From: Herbaspirillum sp. WKF16
GTDB lineage: Bacteria; Pseudomonadota; Gammaproteobacteria; Burkholderiales; Burkholderiaceae_D
Direction of reading: 5' to 3'
Assembly: GCF_028993615.1 (NCBI RefSeq)
Contig: NZ_CP118632.1
Coordinates: 3,472,001-3,536,000, forward strand
DNA: 64,000 nucleotides
The notes under the pieces were generated by a model. The model searched no databases. It was not told where the DNA came from and was given only the letters and a program-made list of their open reading frames with translations. A program made the position numbers and the translations under genes. Positions 11,058 to 45,950 of this stretch are shown in pieces; position 1 is the stretch's first letter; every line of letters starts with the position of its first letter.

Positions 11058-11305
11058 GACGCGTCTCCTCATTCAGCCTTCTCATTCAAATTATTTACGG
11101 CCGGCCGCTGACTGGAAACTGCGCTGCCAGCCTTGCCCGGCGTGCTTTTTCTGGTTTGAGTATAGGCCGTGCCCCGCATAAGACAAGCATGCATTTCCGA
11201 CTATCGTTGCTGCATAGCAGCGTGATTTTTCCATGCGGCCACTATCCGCCCGCCGCAAGCCTGTGTTGCGGATGCACAAATTTTCGGCAACGCGGGCGAT
11301 TTGCC

Positions 11306-11335
11306 TTGACCCTGTTTTGAGCGCGAGCGTAGAAT
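11306..11335 (+). promoter_or_regulatory. Sigma-70 promoter for the mgtA leader
   Basis: TTGACC (11306-11311) and TAGAAT (11330-11335) are separated by 18 nt, close to consensus. Transcription would start near 11342, giving a leader of about 610 nt before the mgtA start codon. It lies 25-30 nt upstream of the first leader-peptide ATG. Confidence 0.65.
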
Positions 11336-11366
11336 TCGCCCGTTCTCATTTTTTGGAGTCCCTCTC

Positions 11367-11414
11367 ATGGGCACTTGTTCGGGTGACAGTTGTTGCCGGT
11401 CTATGACCGGTTAA
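11367..11414 (+). CDS. Candidate 15-residue cysteine-rich leader peptide
   Basis: The short frame reads MGTCSGDSCCRSMTG and stops at 11412-11414. GGAG (11355-11358) lies 8 nt before the ATG, and a good promoter lies just upstream. Three of 15 residues are cysteine, including a CC pair. A perfect hairpin (11396-11401 with 11405-11410) overlaps its last codons, and a second hairpin (11433-11438 with 11443-11448) follows directly, as expected if ribosome progress influences RNA folding. Leader peptides controlling Mg2+ transporters are known (MgtL in Salmonella, proline-rich), but this one is unlike them. Translation is not proven. Confidence 0.5.
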   Translation: MGTCSGDSCCRSMTG

Positions 11415-11775
11415 GCCTCGGCAAGCATTTCAGCAGGACTCCTCCTGCCGTCATCTTGCACCAGGCAGATGGCGGCATCCCGATGCCGGCAGCGCGGCCC
11501 AGTGACCTGGGCTTGTTTCTCCAGCGCCGCCGTTCAGGCATCGACATTCCCCACAACGACAGATCGACGATCGACCGCCGCAGACACGCCGTCACGGCGC
11601 CACGGCTCAATGTTTCGCTTGCCCTCCCGCGCTGCGCGCTGGAGGGCGATCCGGCTTGCGCCGTCGCAACCTGACGATACGCTGACAAGCAAGGCCACAG
11701 GTCTTGCCGGCCAGCGTCTGCCCGCGCCATCAGGCGCCGATGACAGGGGTTCCGCCCAACCGAGCGGAGGCTGCC

Positions 11776-11793
11776 ATGCAGGAAGATTTATGA
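11776..11793 (+). CDS. Candidate five-codon upstream ORF in the mgtA leader
   Basis: GGAGG (11766-11770) lies 5 nt before an ATG that encodes MQEDL and then stops. The stop overlaps the ATG of a second leader frame (ATGA at 11790-11793). So short a frame could only act through the act of translation, for example by coupling or by ribosome stalling. Confidence 0.3.
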   Translation: MQEDL

Positions 11794-11858
11794 AGACCCG
11801 ATGTTTGTCATCGATCCGTCAAGCACGCCCGTTACAGTCCCTGACGCGCGCGACCTGA
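11790..11858 (+). CDS. Candidate 22-residue second leader peptide upstream of mgtA
   Basis: The frame starts at the ATG at 11790, overlapping the previous five-codon frame by 4 nt and preceded by AGGAAG (11780-11785). It encodes a basic peptide beginning MKTRCLSSIRQ and ends at 11858, 97 nt before mgtA. Nothing similar is known to me. The overlap suggests translational coupling, so it may sense translation efficiency near the ATPase gene. Confidence 0.35.
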   Translation: MKTRCLSSIRQARPLQSLTRAT

Positions 11859-11955
11859 CGACGCCACGGCGATGCCCCGCTCCAACGCGGCGCCTCGAAC
11901 CAACAGCCGCTTCGCCCGACAGCATGGCGAAGCACACAAAGAAAAGAAGTACGCC

Positions 11956-14718
11956 ATGAATCTGAACCTGCTGAAAGAAACCTTCGTCAGCTTCATCCGC
12001 GCCCGCGGAATGGACCGCCACTTCCGGCGCCTCGGCATGGACATGTTCCGCAGCGCCCCGGTGACCAAGGAAGTGTCCCAGTCGCTGGCGCGCCAGCTGA
12101 CCGATGCCTCGCGCCATGAAGCGCACCAGCTGCTGCAAAGCCTGAACTCGCGCCAGGACGGCCTGACCGAGGCCGAAGCCGACGCCATCCGCGCCGAGAT
12201 CGGCCCCAACGAGGTCGAGCACGAGAAGCCGCTGACCTGGCCGGTGCACCTGTGGCACTGCTACAAAAACCCGTTCAACCTGCTGCTGACGCTGCTGGCC
12301 GCCGTCTCCTTCTACACCGAGGACATGAAGGCCGCCATCGTGATCGGCACCATGGTGGTGGTTTCCACCCTGCTGCGCTTCGTGCAGGAGGCGCGTTCCA
12401 ACACCGCCGCCGACAAGTTGAAGGCCATGGTCAGCAACACCGCCACGGTGATGCGCCACGACATGGTCGAGGAGATCGCCGCCGAGGCCCAGCGCTACTT
12501 CGACGTCACGCTGCATCCCAAGGGCGCGCGCCGCGTCGAGGTGCCGATCCGCAACCTGGTGCCGGGCGACATCGTGCTGCTCTCGGCCGGCGACATGATC
12601 CCGGCCGACATGCGCCTGCTGGCCGCCAAGGACCTGTTCGTGAGCCAGGCCGCGATGACCGGCGAATCGCTGCCGGTGGAGAAGTTCGTCACCCCCACCA
12701 ACATCGACGCCAGCAGCCCGCTGGAGCTGGACAACCTGTGCTTCATGGGCACCAACGTGGTCAGCGGCTCGGCCACCGGCGTGGTGCTGACCACCGGCAA
12801 GCGCACCTACTTCGGCGCCCTGGCCGAGCGCGTGACCGCCACCGACCGCTCGCCCACCGCCTTCCAGGCCGGCGTGAACAAGGTCAGCTGGCTGTTGATC
12901 CGCTTCATGCTGGTGATGACCCCGGTGGTGTTCTTCCTGAACGGCTTCACCAAGGGCGACTGGGTCGAGGCCTTCCTGTTCGGACTCTCGGTCGCGGTCG
13001 GCCTGACGCCGGAAATGCTGCCGATGATCGTCACCTCGACGCTGGCCAAGGGCGCCGTGGCGCTGTCGCGCAAGAAGGTGATCGTCAAGCGCCTGGACGC
13101 GATCCAGAACTTCGGCGCCATGGACGTGCTGTGCACCGACAAGACCGGCACCCTGACCCAGGACAAGATCTTCCTCGAACGCCATACCGACGTGCGCGGC
13201 GAACTCGACGATGAAGTGCTGCAATACGCCTACCTCAACAGCTACTACCAGACCGGCCTGAAGAACCTGCTGGACGTGGCGGTGCTGGAGCACGCCGAGC
13301 TGCAGCGCGAGATGTCGATCGCCCAGGCCTACCGCAAGGTCGACGAGATCCCCTTCGATTTCCAGCGCCGCCGGATGTCGGTGGTGGTGTCCGAACGCGA
13401 GGATCACCATGAGCTGATCTGCAAGGGCGCGGTCGAAGAGATCCTCTCGGTCTGCACCCGCGCCCGCCTGGACGGCCAGGTCGTACCGCTCACGCCGGAG
13501 CTGCTGGCCGAGATCCGCGAGACCACCGGCAGCCTCAACGCCGAAGGCCTGCGCGTGGTGGGCGTGGCGGCCAAGGACCTGCCGCCGACCAAGGAGGTCT
13601 ACAGCCTGGCCGACGAGTCGGACCTGGTGCTGATCGGCTACATCGCCTTCCTCGACCCGCCGAAGGAATCGACCGCGCCGGCCCTGGCCGCGCTGCGCTC
13701 GCACGGCGTCACGGTCAAGATCCTGACCGGCGACAATGAGCTGGTGACCGCCAAGATCTGCCGCGAGGTCGGCCTGGAAGTGGACGGCATGCTGCTCGGT
13801 TCGCACGTCGAGAAGATGAGCGACGAGGAACTGGCGCAGGCGGCCGAACGCGTCACCGTGTTCGCCAAGCTCTCGCCGGCGCACAAGGAACGCATCGTGC
13901 GCGTGCTGCACGACAAGGGCCACGTGGTCGGCTTCATGGGCGACGGCATCAACGACGCCCCGGCGCTGCGCGCGGCCGACATCGGCATCTCGGTGGACAC
14001 CGCGGTCGACATCGCCAAGGAGGCGGCCGACCTGATCCTGCTGGAAAAGAGCCTGATGGTGCTGGAAGAAGGCGTGCTGGAAGGCCGCAAGACCTTCGCC
14101 AACATGCTCAAGTACATCAAGATGACGGCCAGCTCGAACTTCGGCAACGTGTTCTCGGTCCTGATCGCCAGCGCCTTCCTGCCCTTCCTGCCGATGCTGC
14201 CGCTGCATCTGCTGGTGCAGAACCTGCTGTACGACGTGTCGCAGATCTCCATCCCCTTCGACAACGTCGACAAGGAGTTCCTGGAAAAGCCGCAGCGCTG
14301 GGACGCGGAAGACATCGGCCGCTTCATGGTGTTCTTCGGTCCGATCAGCTCGATCTTCGACGTCTCGACCTTCGCCCTGATGTGGTACATCTTCGGCGCC
14401 AGCTCGCCGGAACACCAGACGCTGTTCCAGTCCGGCTGGTTCATCGAGGGCCTGCTGTCGCAGACGCTGATCGTGCACATGATCCGCACCAAGCGCATCC
14501 CGTTCTTCCAGAGCCGCGCCTCGTGGCCGCTCCTGGGCATGACGCTGGTGATCATGGCCATCGGCATCATCATCCCGATGTCGCCGCTGGCGCATTACTT
14601 CAAGCTGGAGGCGCTGCCGCTGTCCTACTTCCCGTGGCTGGCCGTGATCCTGCTGGCTTACGCGGTGCTGATCCAGGGCATGAAGAGCTGGTACGCCAAG
14701 CGCTACGGCTGGCAGTAA
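11956..14718 (+). CDS. mgtA: Magnesium-translocating P-type ATPase
   Basis: This 920-residue P3B-type ATPase imports Mg2+ across the inner membrane. Visible motifs are TGES in the actuator domain (about residues 235-238), the phosphorylation site CTDKTGT (about 394-400), TGDN (about 592-595) and the hinge GDGINDAP (about 661-668). Membrane segments lie around 100-140, 315-385 and six more at the C-terminus. The N-terminal cytoplasmic region matches MgtA/MgtB proteins, and the length is usual. Start: ATG at 11956; an upstream extension to 11872 lacks support. Expression is probably controlled through the long leader that precedes it. A terminator follows at 14743. Confidence 0.93.
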   Translation: MNLNLLKETFVSFIRARGMDRHFRRLGMDMFRSAPVTKEVSQSLARQLTDASRHEAHQLLQSLNSRQDGLTEAEADAIRAEIGPNEVEHEKPLTWPVHLWHCYKNPFNLLLTLLAAVSFYTEDMKAAIVIGTMVVVSTLLRFVQEARSNTAADKLKAMVSNTATVMRHDMVEEIAAEAQRYFDVTLHPKGARRVEVPIRNLVPGDIVLLSAGDMIPADMRLLAAKDLFVSQAAMTGESLPVEKFVTPTNIDASSPLELDNLCFMGTNVVSGSATGVVLTTGKRTYFGALAERVTATDRSPTAFQAGVNKVSWLLIRFMLVMTPVVFFLNGFTKGDWVEAFLFGLSVAVGLTPEMLPMIVTSTLAKGAVALSRKKVIVKRLDAIQNFGAMDVLCTDKTGTLTQDKIFLERHTDVRGELDDEVLQYAYLNSYYQTGLKNLLDVAVLEHAELQREMSIAQAYRKVDEIPFDFQRRRMSVVVSEREDHHELICKGAVEEILSVCTRARLDGQVVPLTPELLAEIRETTGSLNAEGLRVVGVAAKDLPPTKEVYSLADESDLVLIGYIAFLDPPKESTAPALAALRSHGVTVKILTGDNELVTAKICREVGLEVDGMLLGSHVEKMSDEELAQAAERVTVFAKLSPAHKERIVRVLHDKGHVVGFMGDGINDAPALRAADIGISVDTAVDIAKEAADLILLEKSLMVLEEGVLEGRKTFANMLKYIKMTASSNFGNVFSVLIASAFLPFLPMLPLHLLVQNLLYDVSQISIPFDNVDKEFLEKPQRWDAEDIGRFMVFFGPISSIFDVSTFALMWYIFGASSPEHQTLFQSGWFIEGLLSQTLIVHMIRTKRIPFFQSRASWPLLGMTLVIMAIGIIIPMSPLAHYFKLEALPLSYFPWLAVILLAYAVLIQGMKSWYAKRYGWQ

Positions 14719-45875: not shown

Positions 45876-45950
45876 TGGTGGAAAGTGCAAGGTTTGAACT
45901 TGCGACCCCTGCAGTGTGAATGCAGTGCTCTACCACTGAGCTAACCTTCC
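45876..45950 (-). tRNA. tRNA-Val (anticodon CAC)
   Basis: The 75-nt minus-strand sequence folds as a cloverleaf: acceptor GGAAGGT/ACTTTCC, D-arm AGCTCAGTGGTAGAGC, anticodon stem CTGCA/TGCAG with loop TTCACAC (anticodon CAC), T-arm with GGTTCAAACC-like core (GTTCAAAC), and encoded CCA end. It has its own promoter at 45993-46021 and a terminator. Confidence 0.95.

What the first reader, a model, noticed from the sequence alone, without database searches (positions are those of the whole stretch)
11306..11955. Long mgtA leader with a cysteine-rich leader peptide
A near-consensus promoter (11306-11335) starts a leader of about 610 nt before an MgtA-type Mg2+-ATPase. A 15-codon frame with GGAG 8 nt upstream (11367-11414, three Cys including a CC pair) is the first thing translated. 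A perfect hairpin overlaps its end (11396-11410), a second follows (11433-11448), and a GC-rich hairpin lies at 11621-11647. Known: Salmonella mgtA is controlled by a leader peptide (MgtL, proline codons) plus RNA folding. Inference: this is an independent, Cys-codon-based leader control of a Mg2+ transporter, possibly responding to Cys-tRNA, redox or metal state.
Basis: partly seen in the sequence, partly recalled or inferred. Interest (0 to 1): 0.75.

Follow-up and report, generated by a model that had tools for sequence, protein, structure and literature searches.

The report
Leader RNA switch of magnesium transporters
A tiny gene followed by an RNA that can fold in two mutually exclusive ways sits in front of magnesium-transporter genes in many beta-proteobacteria, and probably lets the translating ribosome decide whether the transporter is made; it looks like an undescribed family, not the cysteine sensor first proposed.

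Summary
The leader is real and belongs to a widespread, apparently undescribed family. Promoter, Shine-Dalgarno, a 13-22 codon upstream ORF (uORF) and downstream helices recur in 30 of 34 genus genomes and 36 of 399 sampled genomes of the order (one of these judged spurious); named carriers include Achromobacter, Bordetella, Janthinobacterium and Chromobacterium. It precedes MgtA in 25 of 36 examined non-genus placements, otherwise CorA, an NRMT-like Nramp, MgtC-C-terminal-like, OprB or ABC genes, and one unidentified. Both covary (0 of 20000 permutations as good) and exclude each other. The uORF stop lies in or just before P2, so a terminating ribosome would block P2 and free SL3: attenuator logic. 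Cysteine is absent from 6 of 53 uORFs, so the Cys-codon idea is not supported. Mg2+ as the signal, high Mg2+ as OFF, and the read-out (Rho or SL4) are inferred. No Rfam match at E<=10; no paper found in seven search listings.

The parts
11306..11335 (+). Sigma-70-type promoter, TTGACC-18 nt-TAGAAT
   Evidence: A TANANT hexamer lies 20-62 nt upstream of the uORF start in 27 of 43 non-redundant family members against 4.9 expected in base shuffles; the listed one is 34-41 nt upstream in 26 of the 27.
11355..11358 (+). Shine-Dalgarno GGAG of uORF1
   Evidence: Invariant in the 20 aligned leaders of A1; a few members found later have other SD-like sequences.
11367..11414 (+). uORF1, MGTCSGDSCCRSMTG plus TAA, with many rare codons
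   Evidence: All 53 family members examined have an SD-like sequence, a start and a frame of 13-22 codons; control.
11396..11410 (+). SL1 hairpin overlapping the end of uORF1
   Evidence: the stem sequence changes with pairing kept (CCGGGA/TCCCGG, CCGGAA/TTCCGG, CCAAAC/GTTTGG), read directly; not tested statistically.
11421..11428 (+). P2 5' strand (GCAAG-c-AT), just after the uORF1 stop here and containing the stop in many relatives
11433..11448 (+). SL2 hairpin inside P2
   Evidence: 3 of 4 counted pairs have double changes.
11453..11459 (+). P2 3' strand (ATCTTGC), shared with the SL3 5' arm
11448..11475 (+). SL3 hairpin (CCGTCATCT ... AGATGGCGG), excludes P2
   Evidence: 94.1% of cells paired, 8 of 9 pairs with double changes, 0 of 500 shuffles reach the covariation score.
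11496..11523 (+). SL4 hairpin plus U/C-rich tract, terminator-like
   Evidence: The 45 nt after SL3 fold better than base shuffles: mean z -2.48, z below -1 in 40 of 45 and below -2 in 28 of 45; positions 28-48 after SL3 are 66% pyrimidine, 15% G.
11750..11769 (+). Second conserved hairpin of the distal leader; its 3' arm holds GGAG
   Evidence: seen in the genus only.
11776..11793 (+). uORF2, MQEDL (SD GGAGG 11766-11770)
   Evidence: A 4-7 codon ORF behind GGAG in 27 of 29 genus leaders; no chance control was run.
11956..14718 (+). mgtA, Mg2+-translocating P-type ATPase
   Evidence: TIGR01524 1387.1 bits against a cut-off of 610.75.

Best explanation
This is a ribosome-read attenuator of Mg2+-uptake genes. 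Shown by sequence: a sigma-70-like promoter, a conserved uORF1, and an RNA that can form either P2 (with SL2 inside) or SL3, not both, with the uORF stop in or just before the 5' strand of P2. Inferred: during transcription P2 forms first. A ribosome that translates uORF1 to its stop (enough Mg2+) covers the 5' strand of P2, so SL3 forms and, with SL4 and the pyrimidine tract behind it, ends transcription early, by Rho or by SL4 as an intrinsic terminator. When Mg2+ is low the ribosome stalls or drops off before the stop, or never initiates; P2 stays, SL3 is prevented, and mgtA is transcribed. The sensor is therefore elongation on uORF1, a Ser-rich peptide in rare codons with SL1 in its path, and not Cys-tRNA.
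For: Conservation in the genus peaks at promoter, uORF1 and P2/SL2/SL3. P2 native pairing is -13.3 against -9.4 kcal/mol for permuted partners (z -10.2, 0 of 20000) and SL3 -18.4 against -13.9 (z -9.9, 0 of 20000), while three control pairings give z 0.4, -1.8 and -0.8. On 38 aligned rows P2+SL2 and SL3 each exceed all 500 shuffles and all slid versions in covariation score. For the window's own RNA at 11415-11482 the MFE is P2 (-26.5) and the centroid is SL3; the RNA cut at 11462 folds as P2. Over 46 members the two states differ by a median of 2.3 kcal/mol, within 5 in 38 of 46. A 13-22 codon frame follows the start in 43 of 43 against 7.7 expected. Targets include MgtA, CorA and an NRMT-like carrier. 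The leader is found in 28 of 136 mgtA-bearing and 8 of 263 mgtA-less sampled genomes (p 2e-8). In the genus it is in 30 of the 31 genomes with an MgtA match at E<=1e-200 and in 0 of the 3 without.
Against: No expression data. Nothing here measures Mg2+ or the direction of the response. The peptide lacks the Pro/acidic character tied to Mg2+ sensing in mgtL: 41 of 43 have an acidic residue among residues 2-8, but only one has two adjacent or one apart, and Pro is 3.9%. For P2+SL2 one of the five covariation measures (further pair types) does not exceed its shuffles (204 of 500), one slid version equals it in pairs with double changes, and two P2 positions are unpaired in 12 and 11 of 38 rows. 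SL3 has no U-tract in the window. A pairing that would link SL3 to the pyrimidine tract was tested and not supported (z 0.5). In the window P2 is the weakest of 47 by duplex energy (-6.3), and under constrained folding SL3 is favoured by 6.5 kcal/mol. Some carriers (OprB, ABC, NicO) are not known to me as Mg2+ transporters. 35 of 40 other MgtA upstream regions (about 1.1 kb each) had no convincing leader.
Confidence: 0.68

Rival explanations
1. Cys-codon attenuator: ribosome stalling on Cys codons when Cys-tRNA is scarce, or thiol/metal sensing by the Cys pair.
For: Cys in 47 of 53 uORFs and a CC pair in the genus; TGT is a rare codon here (0 of 23 Cys codons in six window genes) but 35 of 61 Cys codons in 43 uORFs. 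CruR, a Bordetella uORF, senses copper through CXXC (PMC9426467, passages).
Against: 6 of 53 uORFs have no Cys although the RNA is kept. The identified targets are mostly Mg2+-transport genes. No fixed Cys spacing such as CXXC.
Confidence: 0.07
2. A Mg2+ riboswitch proper: the RNA binds Mg2+ directly and chooses P2 or SL3, and uORF1 is only a by-product or a helper.
For: Two covarying folds of similar energy; Mg2+-transport targets. Mg2+-dependent RNA folding alone is reported to modulate Salmonella mgtA (PMC11552253, passages).
Against: uORF1 is the most conserved piece in the genus (0.98), its frame is kept through length changes (control), and its stop sits beside or in P2. The folds are simple stems without an evident aptamer core.
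Confidence: 0.13
3. Same anatomy, opposite sign: the ribosome at the uORF stop makes SL3, which protects the transcript, and P2 promotes termination.
For: SL3 without a U-tract is not itself an intrinsic terminator; nothing here fixes the direction.
Against: In mgtL and corL, uORF translation lowers expression of the transporter (PMC11282234 and PMC11552253, passages). P2 carries no U-tract either.
Confidence: 0.12

Closest known systems
Enterobacterial mgtA leader with MgtL (and corA leader with CorL)
   Same: Promoter-proximal short uORF, two mutually exclusive RNA folds, a Mg2+ transporter downstream (passages of PMC11552253 and PMC11282234).
   Different: Different peptide (Ser-rich, Pro-poor; MgtL has EPDP), different RNA, no Rfam match; here the uORF stop lies in or beside the alternative helix; found in Burkholderiales and at least one Neisseriales genus; the same element also heads CorA, NRMT-like and other genes.
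Salmonella mgtCBR leader (MgtM and MgtP; peptide names recalled)
   Same: Two short ORFs in one leader (start of the abstract of PMC3641672, listing); the Herbaspirillum-type leader also has two.
   Different: Here uORF2 is a 4-7 codon frame found only in the genus, with no conserved peptide.
M-box riboswitch
   Same: Precedes MgtA, CorA, MgtE and Nramp-related Mg2+ transporters alike (PMC4072509, passages).
   Different: No Rfam match; carries a uORF; no evident aptamer.
CruR (DUF2946) copper uORF of Bordetella
   Same: A uORF in the same bacterial order that controls metal uptake after transcription starts (PMC9426467, passages).
   Different: CruR is a 145-residue protein, predicted to be exported, with CXXC and RAPP; here a 13-22 residue peptide and a bistable RNA.
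trp-type amino-acid attenuators (recalled)
   Same: Ribosome position in a leader ORF chooses between overlapping helices.
   Different: No run of codons for the product of a pathway; the targets are ion transporters; the last helix of the switch lacks a U-tract in the window.

Membership tests
Enterobacterial mgtL-type mgtA leader | uORF rich in Pro and acidic residues near the N terminus | tested here: not met
   Pro 3.9%, Ser 25.7% of residues in 43 uORFs; two close acidic residues in 1 of 43, though 41 of 43 have one acidic residue early.
Enterobacterial mgtL-type mgtA leader | Mutually exclusive stem-loops upstream of mgtA | tested here: met
   P2 and SL3.
Enterobacterial mgtL-type mgtA leader | Sequence/structure match to a known RNA family in Rfam | tested here: not met
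   No match of any of 4227 Rfam families at E<=10 in 11300-11960.
Enterobacterial mgtL-type mgtA leader | Mg2+-dependent read-through; Rho-dependent termination | not testable with these tools
   Needs expression or in vitro transcription.
M-box riboswitch | Match to the M-box covariance model | tested here: not met
   the whole window at gathering threshold gives only a tRNA.
Cys-codon attenuator | Cys codons in every member of the leader peptide family | tested here: not met
   6 of 53 have none.
Cys-codon attenuator | Downstream genes of cysteine or sulfur metabolism | tested here: not met
   MgtA in 25 of 36 non-genus placements; none of the identified downstream genes is of cysteine metabolism as far as named; one placement (G320, second copy) was not identified and the ABC substrate is unknown.
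Ribosome-mediated attenuator (mode of action) | Leader ORF under coding constraint | tested here: met
   53 of 53 have start, SD-like sequence, frame and stop; 43 of 43 against 7.7 expected.
Ribosome-mediated attenuator (mode of action) | Overlapping helices, one of which the terminating ribosome would cover | tested here: met
   Stop codon in P2 or within about 7 nt before it in the members read directly.
Ribosome-mediated attenuator (mode of action) | Intrinsic terminator as the last helix | tested here: inconclusive
   SL3 lacks a U-tract; SL4 has U-rich tails in some members only.
NRMT (for the gene behind the G035 copy) | DxxG in helix 1 and TxxA/T in helix 6 (PMC8806188, passages) | tested here: inconclusive
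   DPSG present; TTIS (Ser at the last position) by eye in the Nramp-family protein of G035.

The most novel reading that the evidence does not exclude
A new, order-wide class of ribosome-read Mg2+ sensor: Mg2+ status is read as elongation through a Ser-rich, rare-codon micro-peptide against hairpin SL1, a chemistry different from the Pro/acidic ribosome destabilisation of MgtL, and transmitted by a P2/SL3 switch. The element marks a Mg2+ regulon in which the unassigned ABC permease/ATPase pair, the OprB porins and the NicO protein are new Mg2+-linked transport proteins. It arose independently of the enterobacterial and M-box solutions.
Probability: 0.4. Interest if true: 0.85.

Novelty: new variant of a known kind. 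Interest (0 to 1): 0.72.

Why it matters
How a cell reads free Mg2+ through the ribosome is known, as far as I am aware, mainly from enterobacterial mgtL. An unrelated leader with the same logic in many beta-proteobacterial genera, including Bordetella, Achromobacter and Janthinobacterium, gives an independent case in which to ask what feature of nascent peptide, codons or mRNA makes elongation Mg2+-sensitive. The element could also serve as a bioinformatic marker: it predicts Mg2+ roles for an ABC pair, OprB porins and an Nramp-like carrier, as the M-box once did for NrmT (PMC4072509, passages).

Tried and rejected
Cys-codon attenuation: not supported, 6 of 53 uORFs are Cys-free. Known Rfam family: no match at E<=10. 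SL3 3' arm pairing with the pyrimidine tract behind SL4 (a rut-hiding helix as described for corA): seen by eye in several members but native partners are no better than permuted ones (z 0.5), so dropped. An anti-SL4 hairpin (GGCATC/GATGCC at about 11475-11487): seen by eye in some genus members, not general; not pursued. An internal hairpin in the 5' half of uORF1: by eye not general; not claimed. The 11621-11647 GC hairpin: real but in a poorly conserved stretch (0.46). uORF2 outside the genus: a loose scan of 16 leaders found scattered short frames in four and no consistent counterpart.

Spurious model hits set aside: G173 and G450 (no uORF by eye), L099 and L100 (not examined further), second weak hits in L051, L057, L062. 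Pattern-scan loci L156, L193, L197 were judged spurious by eye.

Rows dropped before counts: the pairing tests used 47 of 55 R2 matches (six near-identical Herbaspirillum-type rows and two L129 rows, which repeat the G056 copies, left out). (SL4 part) used 45 of those 47; one search used 46. Alignment A5 used 38 of those 47, leaving out L059, L082, L093, L094, L096, L123, L148, L149 and the borderline L071:1618 element, mostly divergent rows. Codon, composition, promoter and frame counts used 43 of 53 (ten near-identical genus rows left out). The start codons of L083 and L091 were first called wrongly by my script and corrected by hand. Downstream genes were examined for 36 non-genus placements; G326 (contig end) and the second G056 copy were not. 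Upstream regions of 40 MgtA genes without an R2 hit were taken from the higher-scoring part of the MgtA list, not all, and reached only about 1.1 kb upstream.

Literature: nine paper-search calls, of which 47 failed on input. The listings of 27, 45, 46, 49, 50, 81 and 82 (each cut at 10-15 rows where longer) showed no paper on this element; one search was about NRMT. The library holds open-licence PubMed Central papers only. Papers were seen as passages only; none was read whole. One search looked in a survey of new RNA motifs (PMC11109978) and found no mention of mgtA or Burkholderi-; its supplements were not seen.

Full report
OBSERVATION. The leader gives one match in its own genome, by DNA and by model R2.

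CONSERVATION IN THE GENUS. A 211-base query (11290-11500) matches in 30 of 34 genus genomes, the window's own included. MgtA is found at E<=1e-200 in 31 of the 34. The one MgtA genome without a leader match, G008, holds MgtA on a 4.1 kb contig; the three genomes without such an MgtA (one of them 63% complete) have no leader match. Across 29 aligned genus leaders the identity to the window is 0.79 in the promoter stretch, 0.98 over the first 11 codons, 0.61 over the last codons of the ORF, 0.83 over 11415-11480, then 0.41-0.57 in most stretches up to mgtA (0.88), apart from a short block at 11551-11590 (0.75) and the uORF2 hairpin.

BEYOND THE GENUS. A covariance model from 20 leaders (R1) and a second from 39 (R2) were searched against 399 genomes sampled from the order: 27 and 36 genomes match at E<=0.01, the latter in 27 of 158 genera. 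These counts include the window's own genome and one more of the genus; the weakest R2 genome (G173) I judge spurious, as I set aside two R1 hits (G309, G410). With this many genomes the tool uses strict filters, so the counts are likely low. In 274 genomes sampled from the class only the window's own genome and one weak, unconvincing place (G450) match. A pattern scan of named genomes (48 loci; 45 kept, three judged spurious by eye) finds it in Achromobacter, Bordetella, Janthinobacterium, Undibacterium, Paralcaligenes and Chromobacterium and in assemblies labelled Polaromonas, Candidimonas and Rhodocyclaceae; Chromobacterium belongs to Neisseriales in the NCBI taxonomy. The two sets overlap (several contig lengths coincide), so they are not independent.

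TARGET GENES. Of 36 non-genus placements whose downstream 3-5 kb I examined, 25 have MgtA in the same direction, sometimes behind an OprB porin or another gene. The others are: CorA (PF01544) in G398; an Nramp-family protein with the DxxG motif of Mg2+-transporting NRMTs in G035; a small protein resembling the MgtC/SapB C-terminal domain (PF21770, 19 bits, below its cut-off of 27) in G134 and a relative of it in G360; an ABC permease with an AAA_assoc_C ATPase in G092, G133, G274 and G362; OprB alone in G189 and G196 (second copy); and one unidentified (G320, second copy). Two genus genomes have a paralogous leader in front of a NicO-family protein (L070, L071). Among the 45 named loci kept, 31 have MgtA in the available sequence, 11 only the MgtC-C-terminal-like gene, one the ABC pair, and two nothing recognisable; many stretches are cut short, but two Bordetella loci (L181, L194) show the MgtC-C-terminal-like gene and no MgtA in a full 5 kb. 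In the sampled order the leader is in 28 of 136 genomes with MgtA and 8 of 263 without (Fisher p 2e-8, not corrected for kinship). It is not universal: of 40 further MgtA upstream regions (about 1.1 kb) scanned with filters off, 4 gave clear matches, 1 was borderline, 35 had none that convinces.

THE uORF. All 53 elements (55 R2 matches less two duplicate rows) have an SD-like sequence and a start codon (33 GTG, 17 ATG, 3 TTG) followed by a frame of 13-22 codons. With the start kept and the bases behind it shuffled, 7.7 of 43 would be expected to have such a frame; 43 of 43 do. The distance from the start to the Arg codon at SL1, where there is one, is 7, 8, 10 or 11 codons in the listing, so length changes are whole codons. 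Six of 53 have no Cys. In 43 non-redundant members Ser is 25.7%, Arg 10.1%, Asp 8.6%, Cys 8.4%, Pro 3.9% of residues. A Ser-rich core ending in S/C-(x)-R/Q, by a loose pattern, is in 37 of 43. AGT is 96 of 186 Ser codons, while in six window ORFs it is 3 of 153. TGT, ACT, CGA, AGA and AGG, also rare in those window ORFs, recur too. I cannot say whether slow decoding or an RNA constraint explains this.

THE SWITCH. Aligning distant members shows that GGCAAGAU just after or over the uORF stop pairs with AUCUUGCC behind SL2 (helix P2), and that this 3' strand is at the same time the 5' arm of SL3. In L095 P2 is UGACAGGAU/AUCCUGUCA, in L087 CGGCGAACUG/CAGCUCGCCG (one mismatch), in L089 GGCAAGGC/GCCUUGCC. 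In a permutation test, native P2 partners pair at -13.26 kcal/mol against -9.43 for permuted partners (z -10.2) and SL3 at -18.39 against about -13.9 (z -9.9); none of 20000 permutations is as good in either. Three controls with reversed or neighbouring strands give z 0.4, -1.8 and -0.8. On 38 aligned rows P2+SL2 has 85.0% of cells paired and 7 of 11 pairs with double changes; SL3 has 94.1% and 8 of 9; both covariation scores exceed all 500 shuffles and every slid version. For P2+SL2 the number of further pair types is not above its shuffles (204 of 500), and two positions of P2 are unpaired in 12 and 11 of 38 rows, so P2 often carries a mismatch. The shuffles do not remove relatedness, so I rest on the two tests together and on the direct examples. 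P2 and SL3 differ by a median of 2.3 kcal/mol over 46 members, in favour of SL3. For the window, the MFE of 11415-11482 is P2 (-26.5) and the centroid is SL3; the truncated RNA 11415-11462 is P2. P2 in the window is, however, the weakest of the 47 by duplex energy, and under constrained folding SL3 is favoured by 6.5 kcal/mol.

WHAT FOLLOWS SL3. Most members show a stable hairpin soon after SL3 (SL4): the 45 nt behind SL3 fold better than base shuffles with z below -1 in 40 of 45 and below -2 in 28 of 45, and positions 28-48 are 66% pyrimidine and 15% G. In the window this is GGCCCAGTGACCTGGGCT then TGTTTCTCC, flagged as terminator-like; in some Herbaspirillum-type leaders the tail is UUUUUCC, in many other genera it is C-rich. 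I tested whether the SL3 3' arm, freed in the P2 state, pairs with that tract; it does not do so better than permuted partners. How the switch is read out is therefore open: Rho or SL4.

MECHANISM. The order of elements (uORF with stop beside or in strand 2, strand 3 shared, strand 4 in SL3) is that of a ribosome-mediated attenuator. Shown: uORF, both helices, exclusivity, target genes. Inferred: signal (Mg2+), sign (completed uORF translation lowers expression, as for mgtL and corL in passages of PMC11282234 and PMC11552253), and termination. uORF2 at 11776-11793, with its SD in a conserved hairpin, has a counterpart in 27 of 29 genus leaders and may add a second translational control; it is a suggestion only.

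NOVELTY. Not in Rfam even at E<=10. Paper searches list no description of it; the library is limited to open-licence papers. It works like the mgtL leader but does not belong to it by peptide or RNA. I call it a new variant of a known kind.

Noticed in passing
window 11750-11793: A second conserved hairpin whose 3' arm holds GGAG, followed by a 4-7 codon ORF (MQEDL here; MRQKTT, MPDISRT, MSKEKP elsewhere) in 27 of 29 genus leaders.
   Followed up: partly
L070 2278-2407 (-), L071 2290-2419 (+): Paralogous copies of the leader in two genus genomes in front of a NicO-family (nickel/cobalt transport annotation) protein, with peptide VDTGPDCCSCRQSRPML or VGTNSDCCSCWKSLLML.
   Followed up: partly
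L071 1618-1741 (+): A weak further match (25 bits) with an in-frame Ser-containing short ORF, about 550 nt upstream of the NicO leader; possibly a tandem leader.
   Followed up: no
L143 489-3629; also L104, L121, L146, L196: A two-domain ABC permease plus an ATPase with an AAA_assoc_C domain carries this leader in several genera; the substrate is unknown to me and the leader suggests a link to Mg2+.
   Followed up: partly
L161 and L173 (Chromobacterium): The leader heads a run of small proteins, at least one resembling the MgtC/SapB C-terminal domain (20.8 bits, cut-off 27), with mgtA further downstream.
   Followed up: partly
L148, between leader and mgtA (G320): Another frame starts MNSDDSSRLPLAG there, echoing the D-S-S-R core of uORF1 (read).
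   Followed up: no
window 45879-45950 (-): A tRNA gene, the only Rfam match in the window at gathering threshold.
   Followed up: no
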